In this document: piece by piece, positions 10,441 through 30,150 of the stretch
Layout: the number at the start of each line of letters is the position of its first letter
Position numbering within the stretch: the stretch's first letter is position 1
Translations under genes and position numbers: made by a program
Notes under the pieces: model-generated
What the model saw: the letters and a program-made list of their open reading frames with translations, nothing else
Databases searched by the model: none
Told to the model about the DNA's origin: nothing
From: a virus
DNA: 31,066 nt
IMG/VR virus record: IMGVR_UViG_3300031539_000191
Span: 1 to 31,066 of that record
Direction: 5' to 3' (one strand)

Positions 10441-11451
10441 ATGTCTGAGCAGGTGGAGATGGGAATGGCGGCCCTTGTGGCGGACCTGCGGCGGCGGGTG
10501 GCGGCGCTGGAGCGGATGGAGGCGGCGGCGGGCGTCGATCCGGCGGGGCACGATCATGCCAAGCTGGTGGCGTCGGATGGCAGCCCGGATCCGGCGCTGT
10601 CAGCCGATGCCAGCGGCAACCTGACCCAGGCCGATGGTCTCTACATCGCCACCGACGAAATCCGAGCACGAGATGCTGGCGGGTTGAAGCTGTATGAAGA
10701 TGGTGGCAATGGTATTTTTGTGCAGGATAGTACTGGCAACGTCGGCGTCGGGATAACACCAAGCACGGAATTGGTGGTATGTGGTGACGCGGTTTGGGCT
10801 TCAAGTGCCGATGGTCAAATACGAATATCTGGGAAAACAAACGCCGACAAAAGGCTGAATCTTGGTTTCGATACTACCAATGAGTTCGGTTTCATCCAGG
10901 CCATAGAAGCTGCTGTTGCTGCACGAGATTTGGTTTTACAACCTGGCGGTGGCAACATCGGCGTCGGGGTGACGCCAACACAAAAATTGCAGGTCGCTGG
11001 AAGGATCATGGCTACCGGCACTGGCTATGTGGCCAATCCGGCAGGCCCGGTGTTTGGTCAGTATACTTCTACGCGTGGTTATGTTCAAGCACCTGCTGGT
11101 GGCACATTTGAAATATGGCAGGATAGTAGCGTTGCTACAGCTATATTCGAGGACGATGGCGATGTCTGGATGATCGCCAATTGCAGCGCCCTATCGTTCA
11201 CAGATCGATCACCTGTGTTTGTCGGCGACGCATTGGCAGCACTCAAGAAGATAAAACCACAGCTAAACAGTGAGGGAGATTGGCGTGAAGTGAATCATGA
11301 TACCTTGCCACAACGATTGCAGAAAGATAGTGGGGGCGAGAGAAGCCGTGATATTGGGGCCAACATACAGCTCAACTCCCGAGCTATCTGCCAGCTAACC
11401 GAGATGAATGAGCAATTCCAAGCCCGCCTAGAGAAATTGGAGAAGAAATGA
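10441..11451 (+). CDS. tail fibre with S74-like C-terminal helical region
   Basis: A 336-residue fibre. It begins with a heptad helix (MAALVADLRRRVAALERMEAAAG), continues as repeated beta turns including two GNVGVGITP / GNIGVGVTP 'GIG' motifs typical of trimeric beta-helix fibres, and ends with a DRSPVFVGDALAALKKIKPQ segment plus a helical RDIGANIQLNSRAICQLTEMNE tail. This ending resembles the intramolecular chaperone (peptidase S74-type) region of phage fibres. The Ser-Asp self-cleavage pair is not obvious, so cleavage is uncertain. Codon use shifts to lower GC from about nucleotide 10640 onward, suggesting a horizontally acquired distal part. It would bind the host surface. Confidence 0.65.
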   Translation: MSEQVEMGMAALVADLRRRVAALERMEAAAGVDPAGHDHAKLVASDGSPDPALSADASGNLTQADGLYIATDEIRARDAGGLKLYEDGGNGIFVQDSTGNVGVGITPSTELVVCGDAVWASSADGQIRISGKTNADKRLNLGFDTTNEFGFIQAIEAAVAARDLVLQPGGGNIGVGVTPTQKLQVAGRIMATGTGYVANPAGPVFGQYTSTRGYVQAPAGGTFEIWQDSSVATAIFEDDGDVWMIANCSALSFTDRSPVFVGDALAALKKIKPQLNSEGDWREVNHDTLPQRLQKDSGGERSRDIGANIQLNSRAICQLTEMNEQFQARLEKLEKK

Positions 11452-14700: not shown

Positions 14701-15704
14701 TCATAGCCCCCAGTGGTCCACCGGGCCCGCGCGGCGGTGGCCGTTTTCGCAATCGACCTGAGCGATGGCCAGGTAGCGTTTCACCATGTCGAGGCTGCTG
14801 TGACCCATGATCTTCTGGAGGGAATAGATATCGCCCTTGTTGCGGATGTAGTTGATGGCGAAGGTGTGGCGGAACCGGTGGGGGTTGCAGGGGCTGACGC
14901 CGGCGCGAGTGCCCAGGCGGCGGAGGTGGGTGGCCAGGTGGCGGCGGTCGATGGGGCCGCCGTCGGTGGTGAGGAACAGGATACCCCCACCCCGGCCCTC
15001 CCCCTGAGAGGGGGAGGGGGGATCGGCCTGCAGATATTGCCACAGGGCTTTGCGAGTGCGGGTGCCGAAATAGACGGTCCGCTGTTGGCCCTGGCCGGCG
15101 TTGAGGCGGCTTTTGCCCCGCACCAGGGCGGTGCCGTGCCGCAGGTCCACGTCTGCCCCGGCCAAGCCGCAGAGCTCGCTGGCGCGGATGCCGGTATCCA
15201 GCAGGAGCAGGACGATGGCCCGATCGCGGCGGACCAGGTGGGGCGGGCGGCCGCTGCGGATCTGGGGGCGGCTCTGCCAGGGATGGGAGGTGTCGATGGC
15301 GGCCAGGATGGCCTTCAGATCGTCCTCCTTGAATGGCTTGATCTGGTGGCGGCTGGCGCGGGGTGGGTGGACGGCCCGGGCCGCGTGGACATCCACGTAG
15401 CCCTCTTCGAGGGCCCAGGTCCACAGGCTGGCGATAGTGGTGTGGGTGTTCTGGATGGTCCTGGTGGATGGGAGCCGGGCTGGCCGGGGAGCGACGCCGG
15501 CCGGCGTGAGATATGTGGTCTGGAGTTGGTGGAGGAAGGCGCGGACGTCGGCGGCAGTGAGGTCACGCAGACGGGGATCCCCGTCCAGAAAGGCCGCAAA
15601 TCTGCGCAAATTTAGGGCATAATTGCTGAGGGTGTGGGGGGAACAGCCGACGACCTCTTTGGCCAACAAGAATCCGTCGACAGCTTGCGATAATCTGATC
15701 TCCA
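14701..15704 (-). CDS. int: tyrosine recombinase / phage integrase
   Basis: A 334-residue integrase. The start is the ATG ending at 15704, with AGGAG 10 bases upstream; the longer reading to 15789 lacks a ribosome site. Residues 1-110 form the core-binding domain (SAM-like). The catalytic residues are all visible: R174 (TGIRASELCGL), K198 (VRGKSR), H276 and R279 (PHRFRHTF), H302 (MGHSS) and nucleophile Y311. A repeat element at about 14982-15022 is translated in-frame as a Pro/Gly-rich insert (residues about 226-241), in the beta-hairpin region before the HxxR box. It is encoded next to the attachment site it probably uses. Confidence 0.92.
14982..15022. repeat. CCCTCCCCCT palindromic repeat inside int
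   Basis: CCCTCCCCCTGAGAGGGGGA lies inside a C-rich flank (ACCCCCACCCCGG). It is an inverted repeat of a kind dispersed in many high-GC genomes, and it is read in-frame by the integrase gene. Confidence 0.6.
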
Positions 15705-15705
15705 T

Positions 15706-15953
15706 GATATGTGGTCTCCTGTTGTTACGATTTGATATTGCGGGTGCAAATTTCGTAACGTTGGACCACACATAAGGGCGATTTGGCAAGCTGTGTCGTC
15801 AGGTGTTCGGTGCAAGGTGGGCGGTACAAGACTTGAACTTGTGACCTCATGCATGTCAAACGTGTGGCCCATAGCATCGACCCCTGACCACATATTGCCC
15901 CGATTTTGAGGTGATGTGTGGTCTACGGTTCTGCTGATATGTGGTCTACGGTT
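15706..15953. promoter_or_regulatory. putative integrase arm-type sites, five copies
   Basis: The word GATRTGTGGTCT occurs at 15706-15717 (+), as GGACCACACAT at 15763-15773 (-), GACCACATAT at 15886-15895 (-), GATGTGTGGTCTACGGTT at 15913-15930 (+) and GATATGTGGTCTACGGTT at 15936-15953 (+). The copies flank the tRNA-like core on both sides, as arm-type sites do in a phage attP. A sixth copy (15509-15521) lies inside int. The first copy overlaps the int ribosome site region, which would allow autoregulation. Confidence 0.65.
15816..15865 (-). other. attP: attP core: 3' half of a tRNA-Val(GAC)-like gene
   Basis: On the minus strand the sequence reads as the 3' half of a tRNA: loop TTGACAT with anticodon GAC, variable region AGGTC, T-arm ACAAG-TTCAAGT-CTTGT with a perfect 5-bp stem, then ACCGCCC and ACC. 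The sequence upstream (to 15900) does not fold as the 5' half: the acceptor has mismatches and the D-loop would be about 20 bases. It is therefore a partial identity, as in attP sites that integrate into tRNA 3' ends. Phage genes and arm-type repeats lie on both sides, so this is more likely attP than an attL/attR. Confidence 0.7.
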
Positions 15954-16226: not shown

Positions 16227-16580
16227 TCAATCACCTGTTTTCGCCGGATAGCTGGCCCTGGTCTCCCGCAGCGCCCTGATCACCGCCCTGGCCTCGCGCT
16301 GGCCTCCCTCGTCCAGATCGCGGTAGTGGTATAGCAATTCCTCCTCATCCTCCCCTGGATCCCGTGATGGCGGCAACAGACCAGCTGCACGGAATACTGT
16401 CTCCGGCGGCACATCAAGTGCCCGAGCCATCGCGACACAGACCTCCGGTCCCGCGCCTCTCATTTCGCCTATGACTCGGCTGACAGAGGTCCTGGTTATG
16501 CCCGCTGCTCTGGCAAGATCGGCCTGAGTCCAGTCTCGTTTCTTCAATTCTTTTGCCAACCAGCTATGGAAAGTATCCAT
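16227..16580 (-). CDS. phage repressor, Cro/CI-type HTH
   Basis: A 117-residue DNA-binding protein. Residues 1-58 form an XRE-type helix-turn-helix (WTQADLARAAGITRTSVSRVIGE, split by its turn near residue 27). The rest is a charged helical tail with no LexA/CI-type autocleavage domain, so classic RecA-induced cleavage is not expected. It is divergent from the early gene at 16726, with three operators between them. The first operator abuts the start codon and no ribosome site is visible (GTTACCCC then ATG). A leaderless transcript, as for lambda cI from PRM, is plausible. It likely maintains lysogeny. Confidence 0.8.
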   Translation of the reverse strand: MDTFHSWLAKELKKRDWTQADLARAAGITRTSVSRVIGEMRGAGPEVCVAMARALDVPPETVFRAAGLLPPSRDPGEDEEELLYHYRDLDEGGQREARAVIRALRETRASYPAKTGD

Positions 16581-16582
16581 GG

Positions 16583-16696
16583 GGTAACACTATCTTACCT
16601 TAAAATTTGTTGGAATGGGGTAACAAAATGCGACCACCTATTGACATATAAGAGCAAATGTGATACACTGTTGCCACGGGGTCACAATTTGCGACC
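16583..16696. promoter_or_regulatory. three 17-bp repressor operators
   Basis: Imperfect dyads of the form GGTNRCA-N3-TGYNACC are at 16583-16599 (GGTAACACTATCTTACC), 16619-16635 (GGTAACAAAATGCGACC) and 16680-16696 (GGTCACAATTTGCGACC). The first touches the repressor start region. The second ends five bases before the -35 of the rightward promoter. The third lies just downstream of its -10. This is the layout of a lambda-like genetic switch. Confidence 0.8.
16641..16669 (+). promoter_or_regulatory. early rightward promoter (PR-like)
   Basis: TTGACA (16641-16646), a 17-base spacer and TACACT (16664-16669), bracketed by operators 2 and 3, so repressor binding would block it. It reads into the ribbon-helix-helix gene and toward the tas locus. 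Confidence 0.7.
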
Positions 16697-16725
16697 TGAT
16701 GCTGACACAATAATGGGAGGTGGCG

Positions 16726-16932
16726 ATGGAACAGAAAACAAAAGTGCCCGCGTCAACACCAGCCCGGGAGAACTCCGAACGACGTAGTATTTCACTATAT
16801 CCGCCGGATTGGGCGGTCATTGATGAGATCAGCGATCGCTTCGGCGTGAATGTGAGCAGTGCGGTGCGAATGATCGTGCGCACATGGGACGGGTTCGACG
16901 GCGGCTCGGTTGACAACAGCGATAGCAAATAG
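16726..16932 (+). CDS. ribbon-helix-helix DNA-binding protein (early regulator)
   Basis: A 68-residue protein with a CopG/Arc-type core: strand RRSISLYPP, helix DWAVIDEISDRFG, turn VNVSSAVRMIVRTW. It is the first gene of the rightward early transcript, in the place occupied by cro in lambdoid phages, so a Cro-like or autoregulatory role is likely. ATG 16726 has GGGAGG five bases upstream; the alternative GTG 16720 overlaps that site. A terminator follows directly. Confidence 0.7.
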   Translation: MEQKTKVPASTPARENSERRSISLYPPDWAVIDEISDRFGVNVSSAVRMIVRTWDGFDGGSVDNSDSK

Positions 16933-16934
16933 AA

Positions 16935-16967
16935 CCCTCAGGCGATGACCAGCTTGAGGGCTTTTTC
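16935..16967 (+). terminator. rho-independent terminator before tas
   Basis: CCCTCA (16935-16940) pairs with TGAGGG (16955-16960) and is followed by CTTTTTC. It separates the early regulator from the tas gene, so tas and array expression may depend on read-through, antitermination or an unseen promoter. Confidence 0.65.
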
Positions 16968-16989: not shown

Positions 16990-17766
16990 ATGGCAAATAA
17001 CCTACTCCGAGCGTTAGTTGACCTACGGGATCGGCAAGTGCAAAAGGCGCGCATCCAATTCAGCAATCGATTGAGCGCGCTGGAACGGGGCGCCGATGAT
17101 GGTCACGACAGTGGCCAGGAGGAGATAGTGGAGCGGTGGTTCGACCGGTTTCGGAAGATGGAGGATGAACTTGACGCCGATATCGCTGAAATCGTTCCAG
17201 ATCATCCCTTTTTTATGGAGCTGAGCGCGGTGAGAGGCATCGGGCCGATGTACGCCGCCAAGTTGCTGGCGATGATCGACATTGAGCGGGCTGAGACGGT
17301 GAGCGCATTATGGCGATACGCTGGATGTGGTGTGGTGGATGGTAAGGCCGAGCGCCCAGTGAAGGGCGAGCCACTGCATTTCAACAAGCGCCTGAAGGTA
17401 GCAGTCTACCTGGTTGCTGGCTCATTTCTGAAATGCAACAGCCCGTACAGAGCGATCTACGACAGCGCCCGTGAATACTATGCCGCCAACCGGCTGGACT
17501 GGACCAAGGGGCATCAACACTATGCGGCGTTGCGGAAGATGGCGAAGGTCTTCCTCGCACATCTGTGGGAGCGATGGCGAATGCTGGAAGGGCTGCCGAC
17601 GCGGAGCCTCTACGTCCATGAGAAGCTGGGGCACAATCACCGCTATTCAGCCGAAGAATTTGGATGGCCCCAAATAGCCGATGGTAAGCAGAGGACCGAG
17701 GTAAATGAGCGAGCCGAATCGCGTGAGAGAACCAATGTATCCGAGCGAGCCAATAATGGCGAGTGA
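16990..17766 (+). CDS. Tas-like RNA-guided protein (Nop/IS110-C-terminal-like), nuclease-less
   Basis: A 258-residue protein starting at ATG 16990 behind AAGGGGCGGC; the upstream in-frame start at 16945 lies within a terminator. Residues about 10-75 are charged, coiled-coil-like. Residues 78-130 contain LSAVRGIGPMYAAKLLAMID and SALWRYAGCGV, then GEPLHFNKRLKVAVYLVAGS and a C-terminal helical part with KVFLAHLWERWR and HEKLGHNHRYSAEEFGW. This is the pattern shared by IS110 transposase C-terminal domains and the Nop domain of Tas proteins. The N-terminal DEDD/RuvC-like catalytic domain of IS110 is absent and no HNH is seen, so it resembles the binding-only Tas type. The last 25 residues or so are read from the adjacent array, and the stop (TGA 17764-17766) lies inside its fourth full box. 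Confidence 0.75.
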   Translation: MANNLLRALVDLRDRQVQKARIQFSNRLSALERGADDGHDSGQEEIVERWFDRFRKMEDELDADIAEIVPDHPFFMELSAVRGIGPMYAAKLLAMIDIERAETVSALWRYAGCGVVDGKAERPVKGEPLHFNKRLKVAVYLVAGSFLKCNSPYRAIYDSAREYYAANRLDWTKGHQHYAALRKMAKVFLAHLWERWRMLEGLPTRSLYVHEKLGHNHRYSAEEFGWPQIADGKQRTEVNERAESRERTNVSERANNGE

Positions 17767-18040
17767 CCCGGGTCCCGGAAGCGAGCCGTAGTAGTCGAGA
17801 GACCCATGTTGTACGAGCGAGCCAAAAAAGCCGAGTGACCCGTCACTAGCAAGCGAGCCGACCATGTCGAGAGACCCATTTTGCGTGAGCGAGCCGTATT
17901 TGCGGAGAGAACCGTCGGTCGTGAGCGAGCCAAAGCCTTTGAGAGGCCCGAGGATGAAAAGCGAGCCGTACCGCGAGAGAGAACCGCAAAGTGGGAAGCG
18001 AGCCGCCGAGGTTAAGAGAACCGTGAAGAATGAGCGAACT
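17671..18040 (+). repeat. TIGR-like array: alternating 9-bp boxes and 9-bp unique spacers
   Basis: From 17707 to 18040, nineteen 9-bp boxes occur every 18 bp. Two box types alternate strictly. Type A is GAGCGAGCC (17707, 17743, 17815, 17887, 17923) or AAGCGAGCC (17779, 17851, 17959, 17996), with a degenerate GAGCGAACT at 18032. Type B is GAGAGAACC (17725, 17905, 17977), GAGTGACCC (17761, 17833), GAGAGACCC (17797, 17869), GAGAGGCCC (17941) or AAGAGAACC (18014). Spacers are 9 bp and all different, except one of 10 bp (17986-17995). Degenerate boxes CAAATAGCC (17671) and CAGAGGACC (17689) suggest a decayed leader end. The A-spacer-B-spacer unit is 36 bp, the published length of mature tigRNAs. 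The array overlaps the 3' end of the tas-like gene and ends just before the gene at 18068. Confidence 0.85.
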
Positions 18041-18067
18041 TCAGAGCATAGAGAATGGAGGGGCAAG

Positions 18068-18283
18068 ATGGCGAAGGGTAAGCGGCCACGGATATTGTGG
18101 GAGGAACGGAGGGTGGCATGCGCTGGGTGGTGTGCTGATGGGGCGACAGTTGAGCGACGCAGCCAAATAGCACGGCGCGGCTGGCGGTACGTAAACGTGC
18201 CTTCGCTGAAATGGGGTTTCCCGGTGTGGATCTGCCCGAAATGCGCAGCCCGGTATGAGCAAGAGAAGGAAGGGGCAAAATGA
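18068..18283 (+). CDS. small zinc-binding protein downstream of the array
   Basis: A 71-residue basic protein starting 27 bases after the last array box, behind GGAGGGGCAAG. Two cysteine pairs (CAGWC at residues 18-22 and CPKC near residue 57) could form a zinc ribbon. The middle is arginine-rich (VERRSQIARRGWRY). No family was recognised. It overlaps the next gene by four bases. Whether it works with the tas locus is unknown. Confidence 0.6.
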   Translation: MAKGKRPRILWEERRVACAGWCADGATVERRSQIARRGWRYVNVPSLKWGFPVWICPKCAARYEQEKEGAK

Positions 18284-23388: not shown

Positions 23389-23856
23389 ATGAGCACGTTT
23401 GTGTGCCCATATTGCGGTGGGCGAGTGAAGGTGGAGATGCGGTTCAGGGCGGAGACGGAATTGAAGAGGCGGCCGGTGAACGCTGAATTGGGGGGACCGG
23501 TGCTAGAGGCGATCTGTGGCCTGGGGCGGTTGGGGCGGCTGGATGAGGAGGGAGCTTTGTGGCGGGAGGAGGTGACGGTCAAGTGCGTGGCGGAGGCGGC
23601 GACTGCGTTGTTGAAGGCTGAGGGGCGAGAGGATTTGGGAGAAGGGTTGAAGCCGAGGAAGGTGGGAGAGGTCATTCGGCGGGTGTTGAGATTGGAGACT
23701 ATGCGGTCGAGCCCGGCGCGACGGGCGTATGTGGTGGTGTGGGATGAGGCGGCGATCGGGAAGTTGCGGGAGCGGTTTGGGGTGGACGAGGAGCGGCTGG
23801 GCGAGGTGGTGCGGATCCTGGAGGACTTGAGGGAGCGATTGAATGAAGCGGTGTAG
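23389..23856 (+). CDS. zinc-ribbon + winged-helix protein, paralogous to primase C-terminus
   Basis: A 155-residue protein. The N-terminus has one CPYCGG pair (C6, C9) with no obvious partner pair nearby except C38/C63-type singles. Residues about 85-150 (LKPRKVGEVIRRVLRLETM, RAYVVVWDEAAIGKLRERFGVDEERL) match the last 65 residues of the primase-helicase (LTPKKVGSIVRKQLHLGTE, RAFVVIWDAERVEALRQRFGVTEEWL). It may bind the same DNA or partner as the helicase. GGAAGGAGGG lies upstream, and the end overlaps the next gene by 14 bases. Confidence 0.65.
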   Translation: MSTFVCPYCGGRVKVEMRFRAETELKRRPVNAELGGPVLEAICGLGRLGRLDEEGALWREEVTVKCVAEAATALLKAEGREDLGEGLKPRKVGEVIRRVLRLETMRSSPARRAYVVVWDEAAIGKLRERFGVDEERLGEVVRILEDLRERLNEAV

Positions 23857-24571
23857 CAAATGCGGCGAGAGCAAGCCGGTGAGTGAATATTGGAGGCATA
23901 CGGACCAGCAGGATGGCCTGAACTCGGTCTGTAACAACTGTGTGCGGCGAAATCGCAGTGCTGAGTACTACGCAGCCAATAGAGACAAGATAAAGGCGTA
24001 CCGGGCTAAGTACTACGCAGCCAATAGAGACAAGATAAAGGCGTCCCAGGCTAAGTACCGCGCAGCCAATAGAGGGAAGATAAAGGCATACCAGGCTAAG
24101 TACCACGCATCCAATGCCGACGAGAAAAAGGAGCGCAAGGCTAGGTGCCGTGCAGCCAGTGCCAACGAGAAAAAGGAGCGCAGGGCTAGGTGGCGGGCAG
24201 CAAATCGAGACAAGAGCGCGGCATATGGGATGCGTCGGCGTGCCCGAAAGGGGAATGGAGGCGGCAAGGCCACGGCTAAGCAGATACGGGCCAGGTGGGA
24301 ATTGTACGGGGAGACTTGCTACATATGTGGGGATGCGGCGGAGGAGACAGATCACGTGATCCCGCTGGCGGCAGGGGGGATGAACTGGCCGGCGAACCTT
24401 CGGCCTGTTTGCAGATCCTGCAACAACGTGAAAGGGAGCCAATGGCCCTACGACTTTGCGGTGGCAAGAATAGAAAATGGCCTCCGCCGGGACGGGAAGG
24501 ACCCGGATCTCTGGCCAGGGGCCAGTGTGAGTCCCCATTTACTCACTTCGGAGGCCAACCCCCATGGTTAG
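23843..24571 (+). CDS. HNH endonuclease with zinc finger and repeat region
   Basis: A 242-residue protein with three parts. The first is an N-terminal zinc finger (C4-C7 and C30-C33). The second is a middle of six 15-residue repeats (residues about 42-131, each like YYAANRDKIKAYRAK), encoded by 45-bp DNA repeats from 23966 to about 24235. The third is a C-terminal HNH nuclease with CYICG, ETDHVIPLAAGG, NLRPVCRSCNNVKG. The repeats form a long basic helix that probably contacts DNA. Related HNH proteins with such repeats occur in phages and homing elements. The first three repeats are nearly identical in DNA, suggesting recent expansion. Confidence 0.85.
   Translation: MKRCSKCGESKPVSEYWRHTDQQDGLNSVCNNCVRRNRSAEYYAANRDKIKAYRAKYYAANRDKIKASQAKYRAANRGKIKAYQAKYHASNADEKKERKARCRAASANEKKERRARWRAANRDKSAAYGMRRRARKGNGGGKATAKQIRARWELYGETCYICGDAAEETDHVIPLAAGGMNWPANLRPVCRSCNNVKGSQWPYDFAVARIENGLRRDGKDPDLWPGASVSPHLLTSEANPHG
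23966..24235 (+). repeat. six 45-bp tandem repeats inside the HNH gene
   Basis: Three near-identical units start TACTACGCAGCCAATAGAG and three diverged units follow. They encode a basic helical repeat. Confidence 0.8.
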
Positions 24572-24896: not shown

Positions 24897-25432
24897 TGCT
24901 GGTGAGAGGAAGGGGCATTGTGGGGGCCCCGCAAACAGCACGGGACTTCGCCCCGCAAACAGCACGGGACTTCGCCCCGCAAACAGCACGGGACTTCGCA
25001 GTGCGTCCGCGGGTGTATCTGCGGCCCAAGGTGGAGGAGGAGCGGATCTGGGTGGAGTTGGGGTGGGAGGAGTGTTTGCGGTGTGAGGTGCGGCCGGATT
25101 GTGATGAGGAGGATCCGCGATGCGGGCGGCGGCGAGTGGTGGAGCGGCGGGAGTCTGCCCCGCCAGGAACGCGGGACTTCGCGGGACACTGCGCGGTGGT
25201 GCCGGAGGGATATGTGAGCCTGCCGGAGATGGCTGCAGCGCTGGGGCGGACGGAACAATGCCTGTTGTATCGGATCAAGAATGGGTTGCTGGCGGCGGAG
25301 CGGTGGCAGATCGGGAAGCGGGATCGGTGGTTGGTGCCGGCGGAGGAGATGGAGCGGGCGGTCCGGGAGCCCTCCCGCAGCAGGAAGCGGGACGGGACTT
25401 CGCCGCCCGCATGGAGGGGAGGTGGGGGATGA
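24893..25432 (+). CDS. DNA-binding protein, MerR/excisionase-like HTH (paralogue 1)
   Basis: A 179-residue protein starting at ATG 24893, which overlaps the previous stop. Near residue 55 it has WEECLRCEVRPDCDEEDPRC, a possible zinc site. Near residue 105 there is a helix-turn-helix of the excisionase/MerR type (YVSLPEMAAALGRTEQCLLY, with an AAERWQIGKRDRWLVP wing). The cysteine block and HTH are nearly the same as in the protein at 27656. The N-terminal 40 residues contain three exact 8-residue units from a 24-bp hairpin repeat (24927-24998), and two more repeat copies are read later. The ancestral protein was probably shorter. Confidence 0.65.
   Translation: MMLVRGRGIVGAPQTARDFAPQTARDFAPQTARDFAVRPRVYLRPKVEEERIWVELGWEECLRCEVRPDCDEEDPRCGRRRVVERRESAPPGTRDFAGHCAVVPEGYVSLPEMAAALGRTEQCLLYRIKNGLLAAERWQIGKRDRWLVPAEEMERAVREPSRSRKRDGTSPPAWRGGGG
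24927..24998 (+). repeat. three exact 24-bp copies of the CCCCGC hairpin repeat
   Basis: Units at 24927-24950, 24951-24974 and 24975-24998 begin CCCCGCAAACAG and end GGGACTTCG. As 24 is divisible by three, the host gene's frame is kept and reads as a triplicated octapeptide. Confidence 0.9.
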
Positions 25433-26304
25433 TTACGATTGCGATTGTGAATCAGAAGGGTGGGGTGGGGAAGACGACGACGGCGGTGACGTTGGCGCAC
25501 GGGATGGCGTTGTGGGGGCTGCGGGTGCTGCTGGTGGATCTGGATCCGCAGGGGAATGTGGCGGATGCGTTGGGGTTGGAGAAGTCAGACGGGGTGTCTC
25601 AAATGCTAAATATCAAATATCAAATGACAAATGGCAAATCGAGGGAGAATGGGAGGGGGGTTGTGTTTAGTGGGCGGCCGGGGTTGGCGTGTGTGTTGGG
25701 GGATAAGAGTACGGTTCTGGCGCGGGAGTTGGTGATGGGGCGGGCGGATCGGGAGTATGCGGTGCGGGATGGGTTGGAGCGATTCGAGGGGGAGTATGCG
25801 GTGGCGGTCTTGGATACGGCGCCGGGGGCGGATGTGTTCCAGATCGGGGCGCTGGTGGCGTGCACGCATTATCTGATTCCGGTGTCGCTGGACCACCTGG
25901 CTGCTGTGGGGGCGGTGGATGTGTTGGGGAGTGTGGCGGGGTTGGTGGAGGCGGGGTTGGGACCAGGGGGGAGAGGGTACCCAGGAGGAGGGCACCCCTG
26001 GTGGGTGCCCCTACGGGGTTTCTTGGGGGTGTTGCCCACGATGTGGGATCGGGTGACGAATGAGAGTCATTTGCAGTTGGAGCGGCTGACGGAGATGTTT
26101 GGGGAGGGGGTGCTGCCGCCGATTCCGGTGGATGTGCGGGCGCGGGAGGCGCCAGCGCATGGGCGGACGTTGTGGGAGTATGGGCGGTGCCGGGCGCTGG
26201 ATGGGGTAGCGGTGGGGCCCCCTCACACAGCGCGGGGCTACGCGGGGCCAGTTGTGGGGGGGTATCGGGCGGTGTTGAGGCGGGTGATTGAGCTGGTGGG
26301 GTGA
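25429..26304 (+). CDS. parA: ParA-family partition ATPase
   Basis: A 291-residue ParA/Soj-type ATPase. The deviant Walker A is KGGVGKTT (residues 10-17), the A' motif is VDLDPQG (36-42), and VLDTAPG follows as the B-type motif. ATG 25429 overlaps the previous stop. Three repeat elements are translated in-frame: six CAAAT heptamers (25600-25641, about residues 58-71), a palindromic repeat (25990-26015) and a GGGCCCC/GGGGC-type element near 26215-26240. They fall in loops between conserved blocks, so activity may survive. No parB is obvious, though the ribbon-helix-helix protein at 27145 could be the centromere-binding partner. It may partition the genome as a low-copy plasmid. Confidence 0.85.
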   Translation: MITIAIVNQKGGVGKTTTAVTLAHGMALWGLRVLLVDLDPQGNVADALGLEKSDGVSQMLNIKYQMTNGKSRENGRGVVFSGRPGLACVLGDKSTVLARELVMGRADREYAVRDGLERFEGEYAVAVLDTAPGADVFQIGALVACTHYLIPVSLDHLAAVGAVDVLGSVAGLVEAGLGPGGRGYPGGGHPWWVPLRGFLGVLPTMWDRVTNESHLQLERLTEMFGEGVLPPIPVDVRAREAPAHGRTLWEYGRCRALDGVAVGPPHTARGYAGPVVGGYRAVLRRVIELVG

Positions 26305-27143
26305 TGCTGACGTTTGGTTCGCTGTTTGCGGGGATCGGCGGGTTTGATCTGGGATTCGAGCGAGCGGGGATGCGGTGCCTGTGGCAGGTGGAGATTGATG
26401 ACTATGCGAGGAGAGTGTTGGCAAAACACTGGCCGGACGTTGCCCGGTATGGAGACGTCCGGGAGTGCGGGGCGGATAACCTGGCGAGAGTGGATCTGAT
26501 ATGTGGTGGTTTCCCGTGCCAGGACATTAGCGTGGCCGGCAAGATGGCGGGATTGGAGGGAGGGCAGAGTGGGTTGTGGTCTGAGTTTCACCGGACGGTT
26601 TGCGAGCTTAAGCCACAATGGGTCGTGGTTGAGAATGTACGGAACCTACTTGCAATTGACGCTGGACGGGCAATGGGAGCGATACTCAGGGACCTGGCCA
26701 GGAGCGGGTATGATGCGCAATGGGACGTGTTACCAGCAGCGGCCGTTGGCGCCCCGCACCAGCGGGATAGGGTGTTCATCGTCGCGTATTCCGACGCCGA
26801 TCGCGGCGGACGCGAGGGGAACGAGAAATTCCACGGCGCGGAGGCTGCGGATACCGCCGTCTGGGATCCATTCGGGGGACACGTTGATGGATTGGGTGAC
26901 GAAGTGGCCGACGCCAACTACGAAGGGGAATCGGGGAACCTCGAGGGGGAGCAAACAGGCATATTCTGCGGGGCCGACATTAAGCGATTCGGTTGGTGGA
27001 TTTCCGAACCCGACGTGGGTCGAGTGGCTGATGGGGTTTCCCAGCGGGTGGACCGACTTGGATGTCTTGGAAACGCCGTAGTGCCGCAAGTGGCGGAGTG
27101 GATTGGGCGGCGGATTGTGGCCAGTGAAGAGGGAGGGGGTTGA
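26304..27143 (+). CDS. C5 cytosine DNA methyltransferase
   Basis: A 279-residue m5C methyltransferase; TGATG overlap with parA. Motif I is FGSLFAGIGGFDLGFERAG (SAM binding). Motif IV is GGFPCQDIS with catalytic C72. Motif VI is VVENV, motif VIII QRDRVF, and motif X the LGNAVVPQVAEWIG end. It probably protects phage DNA from host restriction or regulates it. The target-recognition part is short. Oddly, from about 26780 to 27081 the +1 frame also reads as typical phage methyltransferase sequence (PTPIAAD, WPTPTT, NPTWVEWLMGFPSGWTDL), ending at TAG 27079-27081. Either the two frames overlap genuinely or one is a relic of a frameshift. Confidence 0.88.
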   Translation: MLTFGSLFAGIGGFDLGFERAGMRCLWQVEIDDYARRVLAKHWPDVARYGDVRECGADNLARVDLICGGFPCQDISVAGKMAGLEGGQSGLWSEFHRTVCELKPQWVVVENVRNLLAIDAGRAMGAILRDLARSGYDAQWDVLPAAAVGAPHQRDRVFIVAYSDADRGGREGNEKFHGAEAADTAVWDPFGGHVDGLGDEVADANYEGESGNLEGEQTGIFCGADIKRFGWWISEPDVGRVADGVSQRVDRLGCLGNAVVPQVAEWIGRRIVASEEGGG

Positions 27144-28191: not shown

Positions 28192-28511
28192 GAAGGTAGG
28201 TATGGGGGCAGGGGCAGCGACCCCGGCCGAAGATAGGGCGGTTCACGAACGGGCGGATCACGATCCGCCCCTACGGTAGGGAGGCTTCGTGCTTTGGGAG
28301 CGGGACCGTGGGGTTACTCCAAATACCCCCTGGAGCCGCCCGCCTCACGGTTTCGCTCCGAGGGCGCGAGGGACAAGGGGCAAATATGAAATAGCAAATA
28401 GCAAATAGCAAATAATTCGGGGACTGGGGAGTAAAGGGCGACCCCGCAGGGGCATGCGGGCCAGGCGGGGTGTCGTCCTTTTTTTGTTATCTCACAGGAG
28501 GAGTGTGACCA
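28166..28511. other. 346-bp gap made mostly of repeat elements
   Basis: It contains a possible promoter, a palindromic GCCCCTACG repeat (28251-28275), five CAAAT-type heptamers (28381-28415) and a hairpin repeat that acts as a terminator (28439-28485). No gene was seen. Confidence 0.6.
28439..28485 (+). terminator. rho-independent terminator built from a hairpin repeat
   Basis: CGACCCCGC (28439-28447) pairs with GCGGGGT...CG (28465-28475, 2-base bulge) and is followed by seven T residues (28479-28485). The stem is a copy of the CCCCGC repeat family. It lies just before the ribosome site of the next gene. Confidence 0.6.
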
Positions 28512-28905: not shown

Positions 28906-29298
28906 ATGTCGGGTGAGGTGGTTGTTGGATTGATTGGGGCCGTGGCCGGGGCGGTGGGGGCGCTGGCCGCGGCCTTTGTGTTGATGAAACGGATGCGGTT
29001 GGAGGGGAAGAAGGCGGGCGTGGATACGGCGACGGCGCTGATGGCGGTGGCGTCGGAGATGGTGGAGGATTTGCAGGGGGAGTTGGGGCGGCTGCAGTTG
29101 CGGGTGGGGGTGTTGGAGGGGGCGGCGGCTGAGCTGCGGCGACAGTTGGATGGGGCCCAGGAGCGGATCCGCAATCTGGAGGCAGAGAACCGGCAGTTGC
29201 GGGAGGAGAATGTGTCGTTGCAGCAGTTGTTGGGGGAGGAGCGGGAGAAGCGGCAGGCGTTGGAGAAGCGGTTGGACCAAATGATAGATGGCAAATGA
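28906..29298 (+). CDS. membrane-anchored coiled-coil protein (spanin-like or tail-like)
   Basis: A 130-residue protein with one N-terminal membrane segment (VVVGLIGAVAGAVGALAAAFVLM) followed by about 100 residues of heptad coiled coil (LQGELGRLQLRVGVLEGAAAEL, LEAENRQLREENVSLQQLLGE). Such N-in/C-out architecture resembles inner-membrane spanin or i-spanin-like lysis proteins, but an outer-membrane partner was not found. The stop lies inside CAAAT heptamers (29278-29305), which supply the last residues. Confidence 0.55.
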   Translation: MSGEVVVGLIGAVAGAVGALAAAFVLMKRMRLEGKKAGVDTATALMAVASEMVEDLQGELGRLQLRVGVLEGAAAELRRQLDGAQERIRNLEAENRQLREENVSLQQLLGEEREKRQALEKRLDQMIDGK

Positions 29299-29556
29299 CA
29301 AATGGCAATGCTCGCCCCGCACAAGACATGCGGGACTTCGCCCCGGTGACAGAACGGGACTTCGCGCCTTGGGAGAGGGGCACCGGGTTCGCCCGCCACC
29401 TGCCCCGGTTACAGAACGGGACTTTGCCCCGGTGGCTTCCCAGCCTGGTGTCTCTCTCCGAGGACGCGAGTGGGCAGGCACCCCGGCCCGCTGGCGCGAG
29501 CCAGGGCGGGCAAGGCCTGCCCCTACGGGGGATGGTGGGTGAGTGGTGGGTGAGTG
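29299..29556. other. 258-bp gap composed of hairpin repeats
   Basis: At least three CCCCGC/CCCCGG-GGGACTTCG repeat copies (about 29315-29340, 29341-29366 and 29402-29425) are followed by a palindromic repeat (29507-29527). Open frames here are repeat translations. No gene was called. Confidence 0.6.
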
Positions 29557-30150
29557 ATGGGTGAGGGTGAGGTTGGGGTGTTGCCGGGGATGGAGGGGGC
29601 GGCGGATCCGGTGGCGGAGGCGCAATTGAGGAGCGAGGCGGCCAGGCGGATCTTCGAGGAGGTGGAGGGGGGCGAGGCTGTCTGGATGGCGGAGTATTGG
29701 TCGCTGGTGGCGGAGGGGTGGCCGTGGCGGCAGGCGGTCTATATGCTGTGGGCGAGCCAGCCGCGAGAGGGGCGATGGCCGAAGACGCAGGAAGCGCTGG
29801 CGACGGAGGTGTTGGGGCTGGGGAGTGACCGGCGGATCCGGGAGTGGCGGGCGAATAATCCGGCGATGGATGTGCGGGTGGCGAAGTTGTCGGCGAGCGC
29901 ATTGGGGAAGGCGCGGGCGGAGATCTATGAGGCGCTGATCAATGCGGCGAGCAATCCGGATCCGAGGGCGCACAGCGACCGGAGGCTGGCGTTGGAGATG
30001 ATGGGGGATTACGTGCCGAGGCAGCGGTTTGACGTGGGCCCGGTGGCGCCGGATGAGATGGGGGAGATGACGACGGAGGAGTTGGCGGCGTTGGCGCATG
30101 GGCCGGGGCAAATGACAAATGACAAATATGAAATATCAAATGGCAAATAG
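29557..30150 (+). CDS. terS: terminase small subunit
   Basis: A 197-residue protein with a helix-turn-helix around residues 75-115 (RWPKTQEALATEVLG, SDRRIREWRANNPAM) and a C-terminal helical oligomerisation region (IYEALINAASNPDPRAHSDRRLALEMMGDYVPRQ). This is the arrangement of phage TerS proteins that recognise packaging DNA. The large subunit follows. The final 14 residues (QMTNDKYEISNGK) are translated from six CAAAT heptamers (30109-30150), and the stop is the last three bases of that repeat. The terL frame is the same, 27 bases later. Confidence 0.75.
   Translation: MGEGEVGVLPGMEGAADPVAEAQLRSEAARRIFEEVEGGEAVWMAEYWSLVAEGWPWRQAVYMLWASQPREGRWPKTQEALATEVLGLGSDRRIREWRANNPAMDVRVAKLSASALGKARAEIYEALINAASNPDPRAHSDRRLALEMMGDYVPRQRFDVGPVAPDEMGEMTTEELAALAHGPGQMTNDKYEISNGK
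30109..30150. repeat. 7-bp tandem repeat (CAAAT type), six units, ending terS
   Basis: CAAATGA twice, CAAATAT, GAAATAT, CAAATGG and CAAATAG. The 42 bp are read in-frame and the last unit provides the TAG stop. Confidence 0.85.

What the first reader, a model, noticed from the sequence alone, without database searches (positions are those of the whole stretch)
16990..18040. TIGR-Tas-like RNA-guided system in a temperate phage
Seen: a 258-residue protein with an IS110-C-terminal/Nop-like pattern (GIGPMYAAKLLAMID at residues 83-97, WRYAGCGV, NKRLKVAVYLV), directly followed by an array of alternating A and B boxes (9 bp each) and unique 9-bp spacers, 36 bp per A-B unit. Known: TIGR-Tas systems pair a Nop-domain Tas protein with arrays processed into 36-nt dual-spacer guide RNAs, and occur in phages. 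Inferred: this is a nuclease-less Tas that binds DNA by guide pairs, perhaps to silence host or rival-phage genes. The absence of a DEDD, HNH or RuvC domain argues against a transposase or cutter.
Basis: partly seen in the sequence, partly recalled or inferred. Interest (0 to 1): 0.97.

Follow-up and report, generated by a model that had tools for sequence, protein, structure and literature searches.

The report
Phage TIGR-TasA RNA-guided DNA-binding system
A temperate phage carries a complete, nuclease-less TIGR-Tas system (a small protein plus a ten-unit guide-RNA array) of a kind first described in 2025; it is a genuine new member of that family, and its natural target remains unknown.

Summary
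The protein at 16990-17766 is a Tas protein: NCBIfam TIGR_Tas scores 203 bits against a cutoff of 100 and IS110 fails (28 against 140); phmmer finds TasH (4e-27) and TasR (1e-24); the AlphaFold model (pLDDT 92.7) matches TasH-tigRNA and TasR structures first. It has no nuclease domain, so it is the TasA type.

The array (17676-18039) has ten edge-A-loop-B units of 36 bp, with truncated edges at both ends as in published TIGR arrays. Exact frame: 9-nt repeats AGCGAGCCR (edge) and AGAGAACCR-like (loop) with 9-nt spacers, about 8 nt of each really variable. The array overlaps the end of tas. Similar arrays lie beside Tas in about 55 of 75 viral relatives, in none of 50 control regions and in no shuffled window; edge bases 3/6 covary C-G/U-A.

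Most likely mechanism: 36-nt tigRNAs guide a TasA dimer to bind and bend 16-18 bp of DNA, silencing a rival element. Binding is inferred by homology; the role is a guess. I found no self-target, no excess of cross-targets (660 pairs, 2.26 Mb) and one chance-level hit for 4 of 10 pairs in IMG/VR. New member of a known kind.

The parts
16990..17766 (+). tasA: solo Nop-domain Tas protein, 258 aa; residues ~230-258 are encoded by the start of the array
   Evidence: NCBIfam NF052498 203 bits, cutoff 100; phmmer TasH 3.9e-27, TasR 9.6e-25; AF2 pLDDT 92.7, Foldseek best hits TasH/TasR
17676..18039 (+). TIGR array, 10 units edge-A-loop-B, 36 bp each
   Evidence: relatives
17676..17680 (+). 5'-truncated edge repeat (AGCCG) that opens the array
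   Evidence: sequence
17708..17743 (+). example full unit (unit 2): edge AGCGAGCCG, spacer A AATCGCGTG, loop AGAGAACCA, spacer B ATGTATCCG
17987..17996 (+). 10-nt spacer B9 (CAAAGTGGGA), the only one off the 9-nt length
18033..18039 (+). 3'-truncated edge repeat (AGCGAAC) that closes the array; no terminator follows
16935..16960 (+). intrinsic-terminator-like hairpin between the RHH gene and tasA
   Evidence: 2 found in the region, 1.6 expected by chance
16641..16669 (+). sigma70-like promoter TTGACA-17-TACACT, flanked by an imperfect direct repeat (16608-16646, 16669-16707)
   Evidence: 1 found, 0.6 expected by chance
16720..16932 (+). small RHH-like gene in the Cro position, upstream of tasA (family assignment weak)
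   Evidence: Pfam RHH_4 E 0.051, below cutoff
16227..16580 (-). cI-like HTH repressor, divergent from the tasA operon
   Evidence: Pfam HTH_3 2.9e-10; PHROG repressor 1.8e-8
14701..15789 (-). tyrosine integrase
   Evidence: Pfam Phage_integrase 1.1e-30

Best explanation
This is a TIGR-TasA system of a temperate tailed phage. Shown here: the gene encodes a Nop-domain Tas protein without a nuclease, and the ten-unit dual-repeat array begins inside its 3' end, on the same strand. Inferred from the experimentally studied members (PMC12045711): the transcript is cut, probably by a host RNase and with Tas needed, into 36-nt tigRNAs; a TasA dimer holds each tigRNA by its edge and loop boxes; spacer A pairs with one strand and spacer B with the other strand of a 16-18-bp site; the protein binds and sharply bends the DNA without cutting. 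Guess (about 50%): binding blocks transcription or replication of a competing element (another phage, prophage or plasmid), since the system sits beside the integrase-repressor region and probably acts early in infection.
For: Curated TIGR_Tas model 203 bits against cutoff 100, IS110 model 28 against 140. Sequence homology to solved TasH and TasR. AF2 model pLDDT 92.7; Foldseek: TasH 2e-13 (TM 0.79), TasR 3e-10, IS110s 7e-4 and weaker, Nop5p prob 0.96 but TM 0.34. Array of 10 units with truncated ends. Arrays beside Tas in ~55 of 75 non-duplicate viral relatives, 0 of 50 control stretches, 0 of 12 shuffles. In 58 arrays edge positions 3/6 are C-G in 47 and U-A in 9 (single edges: 399 C-G, 42 U-A, 20 U-G), loops show no such pairing; the first box-D base agrees between edge and loop in 51 of 58. 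No nuclease domain found.
Against: No RNA data, no binding data, no identified target. No terminator after the array, unlike the typical published array. One spacer of 10 nt. No spacer-target excess in 2.26 Mb of Tas-phage DNA.
Confidence: 0.88

Rival explanations
1. A TIGR-TasA system whose role is inside the phage's own life cycle: RNA-guided DNA bending that aids integration or regulates the phage's own or host genes, not competition.
For: tasA lies in the integrase-repressor-early region; Faure et al. suggest bending as an aid to integrases (PMC12045711).
Against: No A+rcB site in the phage itself better than 4 mismatches, same as control orders; relatives with homologous integrase, repressor and primase (L008, L009) share no spacer pair with the window.
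Confidence: 0.2
2. A decayed, inactive TIGR locus.
For: Loop repeats vary (AGAGAACC, AGTGACCC, AGAGGCCC), one 10-nt spacer, no terminator.
Against: Open frame that keeps the residues conserved among 43 Tas proteins, pLDDT 92.7; edge core AGCGAGCC unchanged in units 2-10.
Confidence: 0.07
3. The repeat is a coding tandem repeat, only translated (36 bp = 12 codons), not an RNA array.
For: The first 2.5 units are in the tas frame; ORFs 17864-18283 (+) and 17647-18066 (-) run through the rest.
Against: The tas frame stops after 2.5 units; spacer B9 shifts the frame; spacers vary freely; edge bases covary as RNA pairs across relatives.
Confidence: 0.02
4. An IS110-family transposase or its remnant.
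For: Pfam Transposase_20 20.4 bits, just under its cutoff of 21.3; PHROG label 'transposase'.
Against: NCBIfam IS110 28 bits against cutoff 140; N-terminal DEDD domain absent; adjacent TIGR array.
Confidence: 0.01

Closest known systems
TIGR-TasA with dual-repeat array (Flavonifractor plautii FpTIGR, Faure et al. 2025, PMC12045711)
   Same: Solo Nop-domain protein, 36-nt units, two alternating short repeats, tandem 9-nt spacers; truncated edges as typical of published arrays.
   Different: Array starts inside the tas gene; no terminator; box C is CCR and box D is AG (CCA and UG in TasR arrays). Not experimentally tested, and FpTIGR itself was not compared sequence by sequence here.
TIGR-TasH of Salicola phage CGphi29 (HQ634153)
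   Same: Phage-borne, about 35% protein identity over the Nop part, edge AGCGAGCCA and loop AGACAACCA, 36-bp units.
   Different: TasH has an N-terminal HNH nuclease; the window protein has none.
TasA of Ornatilinea apprima P3M-1 (L089)
   Same: 58% identity, four units with the same edge AGCGAGCC.
   Different: In a cultured bacterium's genome; array wholly downstream of the gene, with a terminator.
IS110-family bridge-RNA transposases (IS621, ISCro4)
   Same: Related RNA-binding fold.
   Different: Have a DEDD catalytic domain and bridge RNA; the window protein fails the family cutoff.

Membership tests
TIGR-Tas (TasA type) | Tas Nop-domain protein | tested here: met
   NCBIfam 203/100; TasH/TasR homology; fold
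TIGR-Tas (TasA type) | no RuvC or HNH nuclease domain (separates TasA from TasR/TasH) | tested here: met
   Pfam finds only the Transposase_20-like region; the protein begins at the Nop coiled coil
TIGR-Tas (TasA type) | adjacent array of two alternating 8-12-nt repeats with ~9-nt spacers, 36-nt period | tested here: met
TIGR-Tas (TasA type) | 5'-truncated first edge and 3'-truncated last edge | tested here: met
   AGCCG at 17676; AGCGAAC at 18033
TIGR-Tas (TasA type) | box C/D motifs agree between edge and loop; extra covarying pair in the edge only | tested here: met
   58 arrays
TIGR-Tas (TasA type) | intrinsic terminator after the array (typical, not obligatory) | tested here: not met
   none between 18040 and 18400
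TIGR-Tas (TasA type) | processing into 36-nt tigRNAs bound by Tas | not testable with these tools
   needs small-RNA sequencing
TIGR-Tas (TasA type) | tandem-spacer DNA targeting | not testable with these tools
   binding cannot be tested; target search found nothing above chance
IS110 transposase | full-length IS110 match with DEDD domain | tested here: not met
   28 bits against cutoff 140
CRISPR-Cas | single direct repeat of 25-36 nt with cas genes | tested here: not met
   two 9-nt repeats; in PADLOC only a weak Cmr5-like stretch, 18 bits
box C/D snoRNP | K-turn C/D RNA with a full Nop5 match | tested here: not met
   no Rfam hit; Nop5p TM 0.34 only

The most novel reading that the evidence does not exclude
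TasA here is an RNA-guided, non-cutting silencer used by a temperate phage against competing prophages or phages of its host (a phage-borne counterpart of type IV or V-M CRISPR interference), expressed from the early operon beside the immunity repressor.
Probability: 0.35. Interest if true: 0.75.

Novelty: new member of a known kind. Interest (0 to 1): 0.4.

Why it matters
The natural targets and the role of nuclease-less TasA are open (PMC12045711). This locus adds a clean phage example with its regulatory setting. The search around it found two experimentally accessible settings: a cultured bacterium (Ornatilinea apprima) with a close TasA and a short four-unit array, and dozens of isolated mycobacteriophages with Tas and what look like stem-loop arrays in a tractable host.

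Tried and rejected
Self-targeting: no site with fewer than 4 mismatches, no different from control orders. Cross-targeting among Tas phages: 660 pairs against 2.26 Mb show no excess over mismatched pairs; one exact 18/18 match (L017 unit 6 in L014 at 2677, about 0.02-0.04 expected), but an IMG/VR scan with that sequence gave one other contig, of an unrelated phage, so it may be chance. Four of the ten window pairs scanned exactly over IMG/VR: one hit, in L163, which shares no gene with the window; about one or two chance hits per scan are expected by my rough estimate. Mycobacteriophage stem-loop spacers (24 pairs) against 695 kb of mycobacteriophage DNA: nothing above control. Host by the tRNA-like attP sequence: only a 3-mismatch tRNA-Val in one Chloroflexota genome; inconclusive. 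Relatives by integrase sequence: none found. Single-sequence search for Tas relatives found none; an alignment query was needed.

Full report
What was claimed.

Check of the observation. The gene and the repeats are present. The array has a period of 36 with two conserved blocks half a period apart. A detector written for this shape finds it only at this place in the window and also finds the array of Salicola phage CGphi29, an experimentally studied TIGR system; it finds nothing in 12 dinucleotide-shuffled windows or in 50 control stretches of related contigs. Read exactly, the array starts at 17676 with a truncated edge (AGCCG), inside the end of the tas gene, and ends at 18033-18039 with a truncated edge (AGCGAAC). 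The edge core AGCGAGCC is constant; the loop is AGAGAACC with variants.

The protein. It passes the curated NCBIfam TIGR_Tas model at twice the cutoff and fails IS110. phmmer matches the solved TasH (3.9e-27) and TasR (9.6e-25). An AlphaFold model from 43 aligned sequences has pLDDT 92.7; its best solved matches are TasH-tigRNA and TasR complexes, then IS110 recombinases, with Nop5p far behind. There is no nuclease domain. So it is TasA by the naming of Faure et al. (PMC12045711).

Relatives. An alignment query brought in 80 viral loci with up to 63% identity. About 55 of 75 non-duplicate loci have a dual-repeat array within 2.5 kb of Tas, upstream or downstream. Across 58 arrays (window, two isolated phages and the viral loci) edge positions 3 and 6 are C-G in 47 and U-A in 9, loops show no such pairing, and the first base of box D agrees between edge and loop in 51. 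These are the rules reported from the TasR structure, so the repeats behave as tigRNA repeats and not as coding sequence. Near-identical phages share all or nearly all their spacers, while more distant ones, including the window's genuine relatives L008 and L009 (homologous integrase, repressor, primase and ParA), share no spacer pair with the window: spacers are inherited and replaced over longer times.

Setting. The tas gene lies on the plus strand next to a divergent cI-like repressor, a promoter-like sequence with a flanking imperfect repeat, a small RHH-like gene and a terminator-like hairpin; the integrase is further left on the minus strand. The promoter and terminator scans are near their chance expectation, so early, repressor-controlled expression is an inference from gene order. 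A tRNA-like 3' end lies beside the integrase (15816-15857). The host is uncertain: the nearest Tas in the genome collection is in Ornatilinea apprima (Anaerolineae, Chloroflexota; 58%), with a four-unit array followed by what reads as a terminator; only 1 of 301 Chloroflexota genomes has a convincing one.

Targets. None found. The window has no site for its own spacer pairs. True pairs do no better than mismatched pairs against 2.26 Mb of Tas-phage DNA. Four of ten window pairs searched exactly over IMG/VR gave one hit, in an unrelated contig. The target class therefore stays open; host genes, plasmids and phages outside the sample are not excluded.

Mechanism. By homology: host-processed 36-nt tigRNAs, a symmetric TasA dimer, spacer A on one strand and B on the other, binding and bending without cutting. 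The likeliest use is blocking a competitor's transcription or replication (about 50%), then a role in the phage's own integration or regulation (about 20%).

Known or new. The system type is known since 2025, including Tas in phages. This is a new member, with small local differences (array begins inside the gene, CCR boxes, no terminator).

Side finding. Tas proteins of isolated mycobacteriophages (BPBiebs31; 90 phage records match its locus at the DNA level, 74 over most of it) and of Arthrobacter phage Talia1610 also pass the TIGR_Tas model. Upstream of tas in the eight mycobacteriophages aligned lie about five stem-loops with conserved stems and variable segments of about 9 nt, some units shared between otherwise different arrays: this matches the published description of the stem-loop form of TIGR array. 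Faure et al. cite mycobacteriophages only in general terms in their main text, so whether this is new I cannot tell, but it offers a tractable host.

Noticed in passing
L004:3612-3955 (BPBiebs31) and L164-L170: About five consecutive stem-loops with conserved stems and hypervariable ~9-nt segments directly upstream of a Tas gene annotated as transposase or hypothetical in dozens of mycobacteriophages; units assort between phages. Looks like a stem-loop TIGR array in isolated phages of M. smegmatis.
   Followed up: partly
L177/W14 (phage Bruns) record 44099-44161: Close relative keeps only the last ~21 codons of tas: the Tas and array segment is gained or lost as a block.
   Followed up: no
L089:9980-10920: Cultured Ornatilinea apprima P3M-1 carries TasA with a four-unit array and a terminator-like hairpin.
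   Followed up: partly
L002:3950-4940: Microcystis phage Mvi-JY20 (isolated) has a TasA gene annotated hypothetical followed by a dual-repeat array.
   Followed up: partly
25120-26304: ParA-like partition ATPase in a phage that also has an integrase; homologues in L008 and L009. TIGR-TasA is sometimes paired with ParB-like proteins.
   Followed up: no
26301-27143 and 23843-24571: C5 DNA methylase; HNH/endonuclease VII gene with a 45-bp in-frame tandem repeat (23960-24205).
   Followed up: no
1966-2006, 24663, 25599-25639, 28380-28414, 29278-29308, 30109-30149: Short CAAATGA/CAAATAT heptamer repeats at many gene boundaries; function unknown.
   Followed up: no
15816-15857: tRNA-Val-like 3' end next to the integrase, a probable attachment site.
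   Followed up: partly
L017 unit at 10842 and L014:2677: One exact 18/18 spacer-pair match between two Tas phages in the predicted geometry; about 0.02-0.04 expected by chance, unconfirmed.
   Followed up: partly
L028, L043, L048, L065: Otherwise different arrays share a few whole spacer pairs or B spacers, hinting at shared targets or unit exchange.
   Followed up: no
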